This document shows positions 47,936 through 64,000 of a DNA stretch of 64,000 nt, one piece after another. Origin of the DNA: a virus. The stretch covers positions 1 to 64,000 of IMG/VR virus record IMGVR_UViG_3300028654_000012; one strand, 5' to 3'. The notes below the pieces were generated by a model, which made no database searches, was not told the origin of the DNA, and worked only from the letters and a program-made list of their open reading frames with translations. Numbering within the stretch: the first letter of the stretch is position 1; each line of letters starts with the position of its first letter. Made by a program: the position numbers and the translations under genes.

Positions 47936-48667
47936 ATGCAAACAATAGTTGAGAGATGGACAAAGATATTAGGTGCTATAGCCTTAGTTGCTTTACTTAT
48001 TACTAGTGCTGTTTATATACACTTATATAATCTAGAAAAGCAAACAAGAGAGACACAGGAGGAGGCCGCTAAGGGCTTGCCTCCGGATGTTTTGGCCAAA
48101 TACATCTTAAAAAACAGAGAGCTTCTTTCGATGGTTAAGGACGCTCAAGGTAAGACGGTTGTCAAGACGGTTTATGTTCCTGATGAAGCTCAAGTAACAA
48201 TCGTCACTAAAGAAAAGGCTGATCTTCAGGGTAAATATGATTCTTTAATGTCTCAATTGTTAGCGGCTAAGACTCCTCAAGATATAGCCGCTATCCAGAC
48301 CAAGCTTAAAGGTGTGGTTGATCAGATAAATCAACCCGATACAGTCACCGTTAAGACTTGGGGTTTAACGTCAAGATTCGGATATGGATTAGTAATCTCA
48401 CCCTCAGTTAAAACGACAATTCCTTACAATGGGGGGTCTTTAAATCTACCTGTAACTCCATCATTAGATTGGAAGTGGGGTTATGCAGGAAGATACTCGG
48501 GTATTTTACAGATTAATCCGGTATTCGTGGGGCCTGGGCTTACTCGTCATATAGACGATTTCACGCCTTCGTTTCTTCACATGAACAACTTAGAGCTCGG
48601 CGTCGTTGGTGGCGTAGGTTGGACTGGTGGAAAATACATAGGACTTGATTTGAGAAATAACTTCTAA
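47936..48667 (+). CDS. Spanin-like envelope protein
   Basis: 243 residues. N-terminal membrane anchor (~10-31, ILGAIALVALLITSAVYIHL), then a charged periplasmic helix (to ~125, KEKADLQGKYDSLMSQLLAA), then a beta-rich domain (~140-243) ending in LDLRNNF with a C-terminal Phe, as in outer-membrane barrel signals. Located just before the holin. The layout (inner-membrane anchor, coiled coil, outer-membrane-seeking end) suits a disruptor spanning both membranes, but no lipobox is present and no spanin family was matched. The beta part could also be an independent enzyme or binding domain. Confidence 0.5.
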   Translation: MQTIVERWTKILGAIALVALLITSAVYIHLYNLEKQTRETQEEAAKGLPPDVLAKYILKNRELLSMVKDAQGKTVVKTVYVPDEAQVTIVTKEKADLQGKYDSLMSQLLAAKTPQDIAAIQTKLKGVVDQINQPDTVTVKTWGLTSRFGYGLVISPSVKTTIPYNGGSLNLPVTPSLDWKWGYAGRYSGILQINPVFVGPGLTRHIDDFTPSFLHMNNLELGVVGGVGWTGGKYIGLDLRNNF

Positions 48668-57516: not shown

Positions 57517-58200
57517 ATGAAAACAATTTTGATTTATAGCGGCGGACTTGACTCAACCACTTTGCTTTACCAGTTGAAAGCGCAGGGACGTGACGTTAAG
57601 GCCCTCTCTATCAACTACGGTCAGCGTCATTCAAAGGAACTAGATTTCGCTAAGAGAAACTGCGATGCGCTGGGAGTGGAGCACCGAACGGTAGATCTCT
57701 CTTCTCTTAAACCCTTACTGGGGGGAAGTTCTCAGACGGATGCTAGTGTAGCTGTTCCCGAAGGTCATTATGCCGCGGAGAACATGAAACTCACGGTAGT
57801 GCCTAATCGTAACATGCTTATGTTATCCGTAGCAGCTGCCTGGGCGATTGCGGAAAAGGCTGATACTATTGCCTACGCGGCGCACTCCGGAGATCATGCT
57901 ATCTACCCTGACTGTCGTGAAGAGTTTGTAGATGCTTTGAACAAGGCGTTAGGATTAGCTGATTGGCATACCGTTCAGATCGAGAGACCTTTTATCAACA
58001 TCTCTAAATCTGATATTGTTAAGTTGGGCAACGATCTTAAGGTACCTTTTGCAGATACTTGGAGTTGCTACAAGGGTGGAGATAAAGCCTGCGGAGTATG
58101 TGGTACGTGTTACGAGAGGCGCGAAGCTTTCGTAGAGGCCGGCGTTACGGACCCTACTCCTTATCTAGACTCTACTACTAAGTTTCAGGTCCCGGCATAA
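57517..58200 (+). CDS. queC: QueC, 7-cyano-7-deazaguanine synthase
   Basis: 227 residues with ribosome site AGAGGATAAC. PP-loop YSGGLDSTTLL at the N-terminus, SINYGQRHSKEL, VPNRNMLML, HSGDHAIYPDCR, and the zinc site CYKGGDKACGVCGTC near the C-terminus. It turns 7-carboxy-7-deazaguanine into preQ0 using ATP and ammonia. In phages, the pathway supplies 7-deazaguanines for DNA modification. QueE is encoded 3.5 kb downstream. Confidence 0.95.
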   Translation: MKTILIYSGGLDSTTLLYQLKAQGRDVKALSINYGQRHSKELDFAKRNCDALGVEHRTVDLSSLKPLLGGSSQTDASVAVPEGHYAAENMKLTVVPNRNMLMLSVAAAWAIAEKADTIAYAAHSGDHAIYPDCREEFVDALNKALGLADWHTVQIERPFINISKSDIVKLGNDLKVPFADTWSCYKGGDKACGVCGTCYERREAFVEAGVTDPTPYLDSTTKFQVPA

Positions 58201-58635: not shown

Positions 58636-59178
58636 ATGATGACCGTTGAACAGAGACGAGAACTTTTACAGGAGATTAACTCCATACGTCTATCTCTCGA
58701 TAGTGATCCTGCTACTACAGGTCTTAGTCTCGTTAATGGCAAGATTGCTGAGATTCATGCCCATAAAGAGAGAGTAGGGCATATCTTATCTCAGGCCATT
58801 GAAAACGAGAGGGAAGCTAACAGACTACTCAATGAAGCTAAACTTGAGCACGAGATTAAGCTAAATAAGATTCTCGCTACTGATGAGACTGTAAGAACTC
58901 AGAAATCTCAGGATATGCGTATAGTGGCGGGTAATGCCTTAATTCCAGCTGAATACCTTCGCGTAAGACAGCTAGAAATAGAAGCGGCTGATGCCGACGC
59001 TTTCCATAAGATAGTTCAAGCCAAGTACAATCATCTAGAAGGAACTAACTCTAGCGTTTCTAGACAGATCACTGTAATTCAGTTACAGTTAGAGATTGGT
59101 GAAATTGAACGCAGATTTCCCGGTCAATGGCAGGCAGCTCCTGGACAAGGTCGTACAATAACAGTCAAAGGAAGCTAA
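58636..59178 (+). CDS. Coiled-coil protein
   Basis: 180 residues, almost wholly helical with heptads (HILSQAIENEREANRLLNEA; QITVIQLQLEIGEIERRFPG). Two adjacent ATGs at 58636 and 58639 are possible. The stop overlaps the next start. Function unknown; its place before SSB and RecA suggests a DNA-transaction role. Confidence 0.55.
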   Translation: MMTVEQRRELLQEINSIRLSLDSDPATTGLSLVNGKIAEIHAHKERVGHILSQAIENEREANRLLNEAKLEHEIKLNKILATDETVRTQKSQDMRIVAGNALIPAEYLRVRQLEIEAADADAFHKIVQAKYNHLEGTNSSVSRQITVIQLQLEIGEIERRFPGQWQAAPGQGRTITVKGS

Positions 59179-61678: not shown

Positions 61679-62395
61679 ATGAAACTAAAAGTCAATGAAA
61701 TTTATGGGCCCGTAAAGCAGGGCGAAGGTAAATCATCTGGACTAGATGTTCTCTTCTTGAGACTATCTGGATGCAACTTAGCTTGTTCTTGGTGTGATAC
61801 TCCTTACACATGGAACTGGGTAGGTACCAAGTTCGTTCACCCGGAGAAGTTTGATCCTATGAAAGAAATCGTTTTCATGGATACTAACGAAGTTAAGGTT
61901 GAATTAGATAAGCTTAATACTAAGGCCGTAGTAATCTCTGGTGGAGAACCTATGCTCCAACAGAAGCCTCTCCTCCCCTTGATTCAGGCCCTCAAGGCCG
62001 ATAACTATTGGGTTGAGATTGAGACAAATGGTACTATAGCTCCCGAGCCCGAATTTCTTAATCTGGTAGACCAGATTAACTGCAGTCCTAAATTATCCAA
62101 TTCAGGGCCTGATAATCGTCTCTCTATGAGAGAAAGACCTGAAGCACTTACTGCTTTAGCTGATTCCCCTAAGGTCTCTTTTAAGTTTGTAGTATCCTCT
62201 GATAAGGATATGGTGGAGATTGACTCACTAATTTCTAGGTTCTCTATGAAAGAGGTTTACCTCATGCCGGAAGGTAAGACTCGGGTAGAACAATTAGCTC
62301 GCCAGGATAAGATTAAAAAGCTTTGTGAAGAAAAAGGATTCAAGTTTAGCCCCCGACTACATGTATTAGAGAATGACTCTAAACGGCGGATCTAA
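61679..62395 (+). CDS. queE: QueE, 7-carboxy-7-deazaguanine synthase
   Basis: 238 residues. Radical SAM cluster CNLACSWC (CxxxCxxC), IYGPVKQGEGKSSG at the N-terminus, VVISGGEPMLQQ, EIETNGTIAPEP and NCSPKL. It makes 7-carboxy-7-deazaguanine from 6-carboxytetrahydropterin. With QueC it covers two central steps to preQ0; QueD and FolE are not in the window and could be from the host or elsewhere on the phage. Confidence 0.93.
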   Translation: MKLKVNEIYGPVKQGEGKSSGLDVLFLRLSGCNLACSWCDTPYTWNWVGTKFVHPEKFDPMKEIVFMDTNEVKVELDKLNTKAVVISGGEPMLQQKPLLPLIQALKADNYWVEIETNGTIAPEPEFLNLVDQINCSPKLSNSGPDNRLSMRERPEALTALADSPKVSFKFVVSSDKDMVEIDSLISRFSMKEVYLMPEGKTRVEQLARQDKIKKLCEEKGFKFSPRLHVLENDSKRRI

Positions 62396-62398
62396 ACT

Positions 62399-63424
62399 AT
62401 GGCTCACCTTTATCATCTTCTTACCTATCTATTTGTACTAGGCGTTGTCGTTACCCTCCATGAAATGGGCCATTATCTGGCCTGCAAATCTCAAGGAATA
62501 AGAGTAGACACCTTCTCCCTAGGCTTCGGCCCAGTACTAGCTAGCACTACTCTATGGGGAACTCTTTTTACACTCAGGCTAATACCCTTAGGGGGATTTA
62601 TTATTCCTGCTGGAGCCGGCAACCGCCCTGAAACTGCTACTGAAGGAGAGTACTTCAGTAAAGCGTGGTATAAGCGCCTTATCGTAGTATACGCAGGACC
62701 AGCTATGAACTTCGTTCTAGCCTTCCTTATCTTTGTAGGATTACTGTGGGCTAGAGGAATTCCTAGCTACACTGATGATTCTATTATAGGGCAGATGGAG
62801 AAAGGTTCCTTAGCGGACAAGGCTGGGCTACTTCCCGGTGACGAAATAATGTATGTCAACGAGGAACCTGTAGACACTTGGCATCGTATGCGGTTGGAGA
62901 TTTCTGTTTCAGGACCGGACTTAAGCCTTGTTGTTCTCCGAGGACACGCTTTAAAAACTTTTCACATTCCTTTCGGAATAGAACCTCCCCGCCTCCTAGG
63001 AATCCTGCCTCTGCAAACATACACTCCTCTAGGTTTAGTAGCCGCTAGTAAGGAAAGTGCTAGTATATGCACTTTCCAAGTCACTCAAACTTACCAAATC
63101 CTTTCAGCTAATTTAAGGCATGGTAAGAAAGCCGAGCTAGCAGGCCCTATAGGCATCTATCAAGCTGTAGCACAAGCCTCCTCAGATTGGGTAGAGACTT
63201 TTTCGCTCATGGCTATAATCTCACTATCACTAGGCATCTTTAACCTACTACCTATTCCTCTATTAGACGGAGGAACAGGAGTTCTATTCTGGTGGGAAGG
63301 ATTAACCGGAAAGTATCCCTCCACCTTAGTTGTAAATATATTCCAGCTAGTAGGCTTAGTTGTTATAGGCTTTATTCTCCTGTTCGCCACAGCAGGAGAT
63401 ATAGGCAGACTTCTAGGTCATTAA
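62399..63424 (+). CDS. Site-2 intramembrane metalloprotease, RseP-like
   Basis: 341 residues. Zinc site HEMGH at 21-25 in the first membrane segment, substrate-loop strand LIPLGGFIIP, second membrane segment with YAGPAMNFVLAFLIF (98-112), one PDZ domain (~128-182, KAGLLPGDEIMYVNEEPVDT), LAGPIGIYQAVAQA, and the third catalytic motif NLLPIPLLDGG (282-292), then a last membrane segment. Every active-site element is intact. E. coli RseP is ~450 residues with two PDZ domains; one-PDZ forms occur in other bacteria. It would cleave membrane-anchored substrates such as anti-sigma factors. Finding it in a phage early region is unusual. Confidence 0.92.
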   Translation: MAHLYHLLTYLFVLGVVVTLHEMGHYLACKSQGIRVDTFSLGFGPVLASTTLWGTLFTLRLIPLGGFIIPAGAGNRPETATEGEYFSKAWYKRLIVVYAGPAMNFVLAFLIFVGLLWARGIPSYTDDSIIGQMEKGSLADKAGLLPGDEIMYVNEEPVDTWHRMRLEISVSGPDLSLVVLRGHALKTFHIPFGIEPPRLLGILPLQTYTPLGLVAASKESASICTFQVTQTYQILSANLRHGKKAELAGPIGIYQAVAQASSDWVETFSLMAIISLSLGIFNLLPIPLLDGGTGVLFWWEGLTGKYPSTLVVNIFQLVGLVVIGFILLFATAGDIGRLLGH

Positions 63425-63462: not shown

Positions 63463-64000
63463 GTGGTTACAATCAAATCTCTTCGCCTGCAAAACTTCCA
63501 GGCACACAAAGACACTACTATAGACTTTGACGATTACTTCAATTGCGTTATTGGGGCAACTCGATCAGGTAAGTCCGCTATGGTACGAGCTCTTAATTTC
63601 CTAATATATAATGTATGGCACTCTGCTTATGTAAGGCATGGTAGTACCGAGGTAGTAATCACCGCGACTTTATCAAATGGGTTCACCGTTGTTCGTACCA
63701 AAGGGGATAAGATTAACCAGATTGATGTAAGAGACCCTCAGGGAAAGGTTAAGACATATGATAGTTTCGGTACGAACTTACCTAAGGAAGTGTGTACTGT
63801 GCTAGGTATTAATCCCCTTCAGATAGATGAAGACGAGTTCATTATGTCTAACGTGGTAGACCAAGATGAACCCATGTTCCTCTTAAAAGAAAGTGGACCT
63901 ACTAAAACAAAGATCCTTGCTCGATTAGCCGGGTTACATTGGATAGATTTTGCATTAAAAGACCTTAATAAAGATAGGCGGCGACTATCCGGAGAAACAG
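63463..64000 (+). CDS. SbcC/Rad50-like ATPase, 3' end outside window
   Basis: GTG start at 63463, because an in-frame TAG lies directly before it. The N-terminus is the SMC/Rad50 head: SLRLQNFQAHKDTTIDF and Walker A GATRSGKSAMVRAL. 179 codons are visible before the edge. Relatives (T4 gp46, SbcC) pair with an Mre11/SbcD-type nuclease to process DNA ends; such a partner is expected outside the window. Confidence 0.85.
   Translation, partial: MVTIKSLRLQNFQAHKDTTIDFDDYFNCVIGATRSGKSAMVRALNFLIYNVWHSAYVRHGSTEVVITATLSNGFTVVRTKGDKINQIDVRDPQGKVKTYDSFGTNLPKEVCTVLGINPLQIDEDEFIMSNVVDQDEPMFLLKESGPTKTKILARLAGLHWIDFALKDLNKDRRRLSGET

What the first reader, a model, noticed from the sequence alone, without database searches (positions are those of the whole stretch)
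62399..63424. Phage-encoded RseP-like site-2 protease
All active-site motifs (HEMGH, the GPAMN segment, NLLPIPLLDGG) and a PDZ domain are intact. In bacteria these enzymes release envelope-stress or other sigma factors by cutting anti-sigma factors, and clear signal peptides. A phage copy near a sigma-like gene could switch host transcription, disarm envelope stress, or process a phage membrane protein such as the 26-residue peptide or the spanin-like protein. The receptor role of host RseP for some bacteriocins offers another idea: altering superinfection.
Basis: partly seen in the sequence, partly recalled or inferred. Interest (0 to 1): 0.82.

Follow-up and report, generated by a model that had tools for sequence, protein, structure and literature searches.

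The report
Phage-encoded site-2 intramembrane protease
A 116-kb bacterial virus carries its own intact membrane-embedded protease of the RseP type, versions of it occur in many uncultured large phages (usually without the PDZ gate and beside a single-pass membrane protein), and its target is unknown, so it may show how phages rework the membrane proteins of an infected cell.

Summary
ORF 62399-63424 encodes a 341-aa M50 site-2 protease (Pfam E 3.5e-49; TIGR00054 over cut-off) with HEMGH, GPAMN, NLLPIPLLDGG and one PDZ. It is not a contig-end contaminant: the record runs 52.7 kb further, and the gene sits between phage queE and an SbcC-like gene. A related phage, assembled from three metagenomes, keeps the gene at the same place, but its copy (265 aa) lacks the PDZ. 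Selection is purifying (dN/dS 0.16), yet dN is the highest of 14 genes compared, nearly matched by the phage's membrane-anchored HtrA-like protease. IMG/VR scans found PDZ-less phage S2Ps (~267 aa) on contigs up to 235 kb. In one large branch the gene is always preceded, with overlapping ends, by a ~160-aa type II single-pass membrane protein. In several loci a trypsin-like lipoprotein, a vWA lipoprotein and two small exported proteins sit alongside. Among 50,697 catalogued phage records, the six S2P hits checked (of 20) were host DNA. Best reading: an active phage S2P that cuts single-pass inner-membrane proteins, probably after trimming by a phage site-1-like protease. A sigma/anti-sigma switch has no support. 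The substrate is unknown. New variant of a known kind.

The parts
62399..63424 (+). Site-2 protease (M50, RseP/TIGR00054 type), 341 aa, single PDZ
62459..62473 (+). HEMGH zinc-binding/catalytic motif (residues 21-25)
   Evidence: translation; H21, E22, G24, H25 invariant in six phage S2Ps
62696..62710 (+). GPAMN (GxxxN) motif (residues 100-104)
   Evidence: translation; G100, P101, N104 invariant
62783..62935 (+). PDZ domain (residues 129-179); absent, with its flanks, from the syntenic 265-aa homologue
   Evidence: Pfam PF00595 24.3 bits; alignment with L010; L010 gives no PDZ hit
63242..63274 (+). NLLPIPLLDGG motif (residues 282-292; Asp290 is the third metal ligand)
   Evidence: translation; N282, D290, G291, G292 invariant
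61679..62395 (+). queE (radical SAM); its stop lies 3 bases before the S2P ATG, same direction (context, not part of the protease)
   Evidence: Pfam; sequence; no promoter-like site in the gap
63463..63999 (+). SbcC/gp46-like ATPase (continues to 64434 in the record); context
47936..48667 (+). 243-aa N-anchored single-pass membrane protein ('spanin-like'), a possible substrate only
   Evidence: dN/dS 0.24

Best explanation
The gene makes a working RseP-type site-2 intramembrane metalloprotease, probably expressed with the phage's replication and 7-deazaguanine genes and placed in the host's inner membrane. It cuts the transmembrane helix of single-pass (type II, N-in) membrane proteins whose outer part is short or has been trimmed. 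In the window phage the PDZ domain should act as a size filter, so that a first cut is needed; the phage's own membrane-anchored trypsin/HtrA-like protease (record 89979-90743) is the best candidate for that first cut. In the relative that has lost the PDZ, and in the many PDZ-less S2Ps of large phages, the filter is gone. There the enzyme would act directly, probably on or with the single-pass protein encoded by the overlapping upstream gene. Shown: the gene, its motifs, synteny, purifying selection, PDZ loss, and the repeated pairing with a trypsin-like protease and/or a type II membrane protein. Inferred: activity, order of cuts, substrate and timing.
For: Catalytic residues are invariant in six diverse phage S2Ps. 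RseP family cut-off passed and fold match to RasP/RseP. Syntenic in a related phage assembled from three metagenomes, with a 265-aa PDZ-less version identical in all three. dN/dS 0.164; dN 0.343 against 0.05-0.13 for most core genes, and HtrA-like dN 0.326. The HtrA-like protease is present in both phages of this lineage. In other phages S2P lies next to a trypsin-like lipoprotein protease. All seven S2P-bearing records over 100 kb encode a Trypsin_2 protein. About 20 loci have a type II membrane protein gene overlapping the S2P start. Literature: PDZ disruption lets E. coli RseP cut RseA without site-1 cleavage (PMC10202637); RseP degrades small membrane proteins including HokB (PMC10470546).
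Against: No substrate is identified for the window phage, and the type II partner gene is absent next to its S2P. The HtrA-like gene is 26.5 kb away, is only distantly related to the lipoprotein trypsins (22% identity) and lacks a PDZ. Large vWA-module contigs without S2P also carry Trypsin_2 (2 of 5 over 100 kb), so the S2P-trypsin link is only weakly above background. No expression or activity data; host unknown.
Confidence: 0.5

Rival explanations
1. Counter-defence: the phage S2P destroys small single-pass host membrane toxins or abortive-infection effectors (Hok type and others) that would stop infection.
For: RseP cleaves and neutralises HokB and other small membrane proteins (PMC10470546). 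Fast amino-acid change of S2P under net purifying selection and loss of the PDZ filter would suit a broad cutter in conflict with the host. S2Ps also occur on plasmids, away from the housekeeping context.
Against: No defence family hit for S2P (PADLOC). The conserved overlapping membrane-protein partner in other phages suggests a phage-encoded target or regulator instead.
Confidence: 0.17
2. Membrane housekeeping: the S2P clears signal-peptide stubs and surplus single-pass proteins produced when the phage exports its own envelope and lysis proteins; no dedicated substrate.
For: Elimination of signal peptides and small membrane proteins is a known RseP task. Phages with this gene encode several exported proteins and lipoproteins.
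Against: Bacteria generally have their own S2P (79 of 80 genomes of the one phylum sampled match). The fixed, overlapping pairing with one membrane protein family points to something more specific.
Confidence: 0.15
3. Regulated intramembrane proteolysis of an anti-sigma factor to switch host or phage transcription.
For: Sigma-like genes exist in the record, and S1P+S2P cascades of this kind are the textbook RseP role.
Against: No phage-encoded membrane protein with an anti-sigma-sized cytoplasmic domain was found; sigma-like genes are not adjacent; PDZ loss in the relative removes signal gating.
Confidence: 0.08
4. Passenger gene recently taken from a host, without a role in infection, or an assembly/contamination artefact.
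For: RseP genes labelled 'phage' in catalogued records were host DNA in the six cases checked.
Against: The gene lies inside a 116-kb phage record, is syntenic in a second phage from three metagenomes, shows dN/dS 0.16, and has no host rseP neighbours (dxr, cdsA, bamA, proS). In the tree the window pair lies outside the sampled bacterial clades.
Confidence: 0.05

Closest known systems
Bacterial RseP/RasP (TIGR00054; group I site-2 proteases, e.g. E. coli RseP 7w6x, Aquifex aq_1964 9j82, Bacillus RasP)
   Same: HExxH, GxxxN, NxxPxPxLDG, reentrant beta-hairpin, PDZ between TM2 and TM3; passes the TIGR00054 cut-off; best fold and sequence matches.
   Different: One PDZ, where E. coli and Aquifex RseP have two; 341 aa; phage operon instead of the dxr-cdsA-bamA/proS context; about 30-35% identity; the syntenic phage homologue has no PDZ.
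PDZ-less phage S2Ps of large uncultured phages (L020, L027, L031, L080, L120-L143)
   Same: Same core motifs; phage-borne; in the tree they group with the window pair, with weak support (80/79).
   Different: Only 29-35% identical to the window protein; no PDZ; paired with an overlapping type II membrane protein gene and/or a trypsin-vWA lipoprotein cassette.
Plasmid-borne M50 proteases (Thermovibrio pTHEAM01, Pelobacter pPRO1, Geobacter pSD, Sphingosinicella p1)
   Same: Short S2Ps (about 325-355 aa) on plasmids, away from the housekeeping rseP context.
   Different: Separate deep branches of the tree; element type and neighbours differ.
A0A6J5SMS1, 'Peptidase M50 [uncultured Caudovirales phage]' (BFVD/UniProt)
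   Same: A viral M50 already named in a public database; matched by the fold of the PDZ-less homologue (E 9.7e-07).
   Different: 184 aa, 15% identity; no study of it was found.
B. subtilis SpoIVFB
   Same: S2P without PDZ, acting without a site-1 cut and held by partner membrane proteins; a functional parallel for the PDZ-less phage forms.
   Different: SpoIVFB belongs to the CBS-domain group (own knowledge); no CBS domain was found here.

Membership tests
M50 site-2 protease | HExxH and NxxPxxxLDG metal-binding motifs within TM segments | tested here: met
   TM segments at 2-20, 95-113, 270-288, 310-328
RseP equivalog (TIGR00054) | Score over the curated cut-off (147.55 bits) | tested here: met
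   196.4 bits
E. coli-type RseP (NF008046, sigma-E protease) | Score over the cut-off (477 bits); tandem PDZ | tested here: not met
   116.6 bits; one PDZ only
Group I S2P | At least one PDZ between TM2 and TM3 | tested here: met
   PF00595 24.3 bits; but the syntenic L010 homologue and the other phage S2Ps have none
Group I S2P / RseP | Housekeeping genomic context (dxr, cdsA, bamA or proS) | tested here: not met
   neighbours are queE and an SbcC-like gene
RseP / site-2 protease | Intramembrane proteolytic activity | not testable with these tools
   needs expression and a cleavage assay
RseA-type RIP cascade | A site-1 protease encoded with it | tested here: inconclusive
   membrane-anchored trypsin-like protease at record 89979-90743, 26.5 kb away
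RseA-type RIP cascade | Membrane anti-sigma substrate plus ECF sigma factor | tested here: not met
   no such membrane protein found in the record; the sigma-like proteins match phage sigma families
DegS/HtrA (for the phage trypsin-like protease) | Trypsin domain with His-Asp-Ser triad plus C-terminal PDZ | tested here: not met
   trypsin domain, H100, D134 and S204 present; no PDZ in 254 aa
SpoIVFB-type (group III) | CBS domain | tested here: not met
   no CBS hit for window, L010 or L020 proteins

The most novel reading that the evidence does not exclude
Large phages carry a dedicated, phage-encoded regulated intramembrane proteolysis pathway: a secreted or anchored trypsin-like site-1 protease, a site-2 protease usually freed of its PDZ gate, and a type II single-pass membrane protein encoded with overlapping ends as its substrate or regulator. 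The pathway acts on the envelope of the infected cell, for example to release a cytoplasmic signal or to strip host membrane proteins. The window phage holds a two-protease version with the gate still present.
Probability: 0.3. Interest if true: 0.85.

Novelty: new variant of a known kind. Interest (0 to 1): 0.62.

Why it matters
S2P proteases are well studied in cells, but an S2P review (PMC10202637), a jumbo-phage survey (PMC7824862) and the literature searches made here held nothing on phage ones. A phage lineage in which two close relatives differ by a clean loss of the PDZ gate is a natural experiment on what that gate does. The fixed pairing with one membrane protein family in other phages gives a ready list of candidate substrates and makes phage control of the host inner membrane by intramembrane proteolysis directly testable.

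Tried and rejected
Contaminant or contig end: rejected. Catalogued phage S2Ps as relatives: six of the 20 records were inspected and all are bacterial chromosome (neighbours bamA/lpxD, ispG, pyrH/rpsB/bamA, proS, dxr/cdsA; neighbours in the four unannotated records identified by eye from their sequences). A 43-aa TM ORF at 58646-58777 inside another gene is not conserved, taken as chance. The 43-aa TM protein at record 66593-66724 is conserved (65%) near S2P but has C-terminal positive charges, suggesting N-out, and nothing ties it to S2P. Host from phylogeny: not resolved; the window pair sits on a long branch outside the Gammaproteobacteria, Alphaproteobacteria, Bacillota and Acidobacteriota clades. 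A single-protein scan of IMG/VR found nothing; alignment queries were needed. A scan with the phage HtrA alignment found only the known relative. S2P-Trypsin_2 co-occurrence in contigs over 100 kb: 7 of 7 with S2P against 2 of 5 vWA-module contigs without it; one-sided Fisher p about 0.045 worked out by hand, contigs not independent, so only suggestive.

Full report
What is there. The window is bases 1-64000 of a 116,673-bp virus record. ORF 62399-63424 encodes a 341-aa protein with HEMGH, GPAMN and NLLPIPLLDGG motifs and a PDZ domain. Pfam Peptidase_M50 E 3.5e-49, PDZ 24.3 bits over its 23.2 cut-off; NCBIfam TIGR00054 196.4 bits over 147.55, while the E. coli-type model NF008046 is far below its cut-off. 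PHROGs gave no S2P family; the only weak hit is to the PDZ. Nearest solved sequences are Aquifex RseP (9j82, E 1.1e-49) and the Kangiella and E. coli RseP structures. The AlphaFold2 model is confident in the membrane core and poor in the PDZ region, and matches RasP/RseP structures.

Is it phage? The record has a major head protein, tail sheath, baseplate wedge, replicative helicase and holin by PHROGs, and continues 52.7 kb beyond the window with further phage genes. S2P starts 3 bases after the queE stop with no promoter-like site between, and is followed by SbcC- and SbcD-like genes. A scan with the phage polymerase found a related phage in IMG/VR (polymerase 88% identical) assembled from three metagenomes; recA, queE, S2P, sbcCD, queD and polA are in the same order. 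The S2P coding sequence is identical in the three assemblies.

The PDZ is lost in the relative. Its S2P is 265 aa. It aligns with the window protein at 58% identity and lacks the PDZ and flanking loop, while every catalytic motif stays. Pfam finds M50 but no PDZ in it. Pairwise dN/dS is 0.164 for S2P and 0.188 for the phage's HtrA-like protease; their dN values (0.343 and 0.326) are the highest of 14 genes compared, against 0.05-0.13 for most core genes (dS values are high, so the ratios are rough). The protein is thus kept but changes fast, with its gate optional. In E. coli, PDZ disruption lets RseP cut RseA without the site-1 cut, and the PDZ is thought to act as a size filter (PMC10202637).

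A second protease in the same phage. Record 89979-90743 encodes a 254-aa membrane-anchored trypsin-like protease (Trypsin_2 E 7.8e-23) with His100, Asp134 and Ser204 conserved in the relative and no PDZ; the relative has it too (60% identity). It resembles a site-1 protease in placement and chemistry but is not a DegS member. It lies 26.5 kb from S2P.

Other phages. Scans of IMG/VR with growing alignments gave 5, 13 and 34 loci with phage S2Ps, on contigs up to 235,681 bp. Apart from the window protein, all full-length copies examined are about 265-273 aa without PDZ. In the branch holding L020, L027 and L120-L143 the gene just upstream, overlapping the S2P start by about 16-40 bases, encodes a ~155-180-aa membrane protein. 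Its family has a conserved N-terminal RER...NA stretch, one TM segment and a coiled-coil-like outer part with an LWTP/FWxP motif: by sequence a type II protein, the substrate topology of RseP. PHROGs gives only a marginal Rz-spanin hit (E 0.0098). In L020, L027, L031, L080, L130, L141 and L142 there is also a cassette of a trypsin-like lipoprotein, a ~94-aa exported protein, a ~150-aa anchored protein and a MopE-repeat/vWA lipoprotein. The cassette also exists without a nearby S2P (L081-L083; none elsewhere on those contigs).

Origin. In trees the window and its relative form one pair (100/100) and the other phage S2Ps another clade (100/100). Together they are one side of a branch with support 80/79, flagged as a possible long-branch join. 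Neither group falls inside the sampled bacterial clades. No host is assigned. S2Ps outside the housekeeping context also occur on plasmids.

Rarity. tblastn against 50,697 catalogued phage records found 20 with an S2P-like match. Six were inspected and all are bacterial chromosome; the other 14 were not inspected. The PDZ-less query gave essentially the same set. BFVD holds one 184-aa 'Peptidase M50' of an uncultured phage, so phage M50 proteins are not unknown to databases. Literature searches found no study of a phage S2P.

How it probably works. Shown: gene, motifs, fold, synteny, selection, PDZ loss, recurring neighbours. Inferred: it is an active S2P in the host inner membrane that cuts single-pass proteins; the window form, with its PDZ, prefers trimmed substrates, with the phage trypsin-like protease as candidate first cutter; PDZ-less forms act directly, most likely on or with their overlapping membrane partner. 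The sigma/anti-sigma switch is not supported because no anti-sigma-like membrane protein was found in the record. Counter-defence against membrane toxins is a fair rival, given that RseP neutralises HokB (PMC10470546). Activity, timing, substrate and host remain unknown.

Noticed in passing
L020:6534-10759, L027:4527-8759, L031:8001-11738, L080:830-4590, L081-L083, L130, L141, L142: A conserved phage cassette of four exported proteins: vWA/MopE-repeat lipoprotein (~420 aa), ~150-aa anchored protein, ~94-aa exported protein with a MPFIT-like C-terminal stretch, and a trypsin-like lipoprotein; found with and without S2P. vWA relatives occur in 37 IMG/VR loci.
   Followed up: partly
L120-L143 (e.g. 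L125:9522-10022): A ~160-aa type II membrane protein family with conserved cytoplasmic N-terminus, always encoded with overlapping ends just before the S2P gene.
   Followed up: partly
record 89979-90743 (L003:9979-10743): Membrane-anchored trypsin-like protease; matches the protease part of PADLOC RT-Protease_XI models (E 8.8e-14).
   Followed up: partly
window 57517-58200, 61679-62395; record 65863-66336, 71329-72261: A queC, queE, queD and folE2 set, suggesting phage 7-deazaguanine DNA modification.
   Followed up: no
record 102523-103389 (-), 107577-108638 (-): A papain-family protease with an N-terminal TM segment and an IMP dehydrogenase-family protein are also encoded by the phage.
   Followed up: no
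record 68445-70895: 816-aa PolA-type polymerase with an N-terminal part that looks, by eye, like a uracil-DNA glycosylase domain (not tested).
   Followed up: no
record 66593-66724: 43-aa single-TM protein conserved (65%) in the related phage, a few genes downstream of S2P.
   Followed up: partly
MT838029, MT836050, OQ572403, OR846608, CAKLQH020000012, AFYI01000001: Records in the phage collection whose rseP regions are bacterial chromosome (bamA, ispG, pyrH, proS or dxr neighbours).
   Followed up: yes
L044, L046, L047, L052 (plasmids pTHEAM01, pPRO1, pSD, p1): Stand-alone short M50 proteases on plasmids, outside the housekeeping rseP context.
   Followed up: partly
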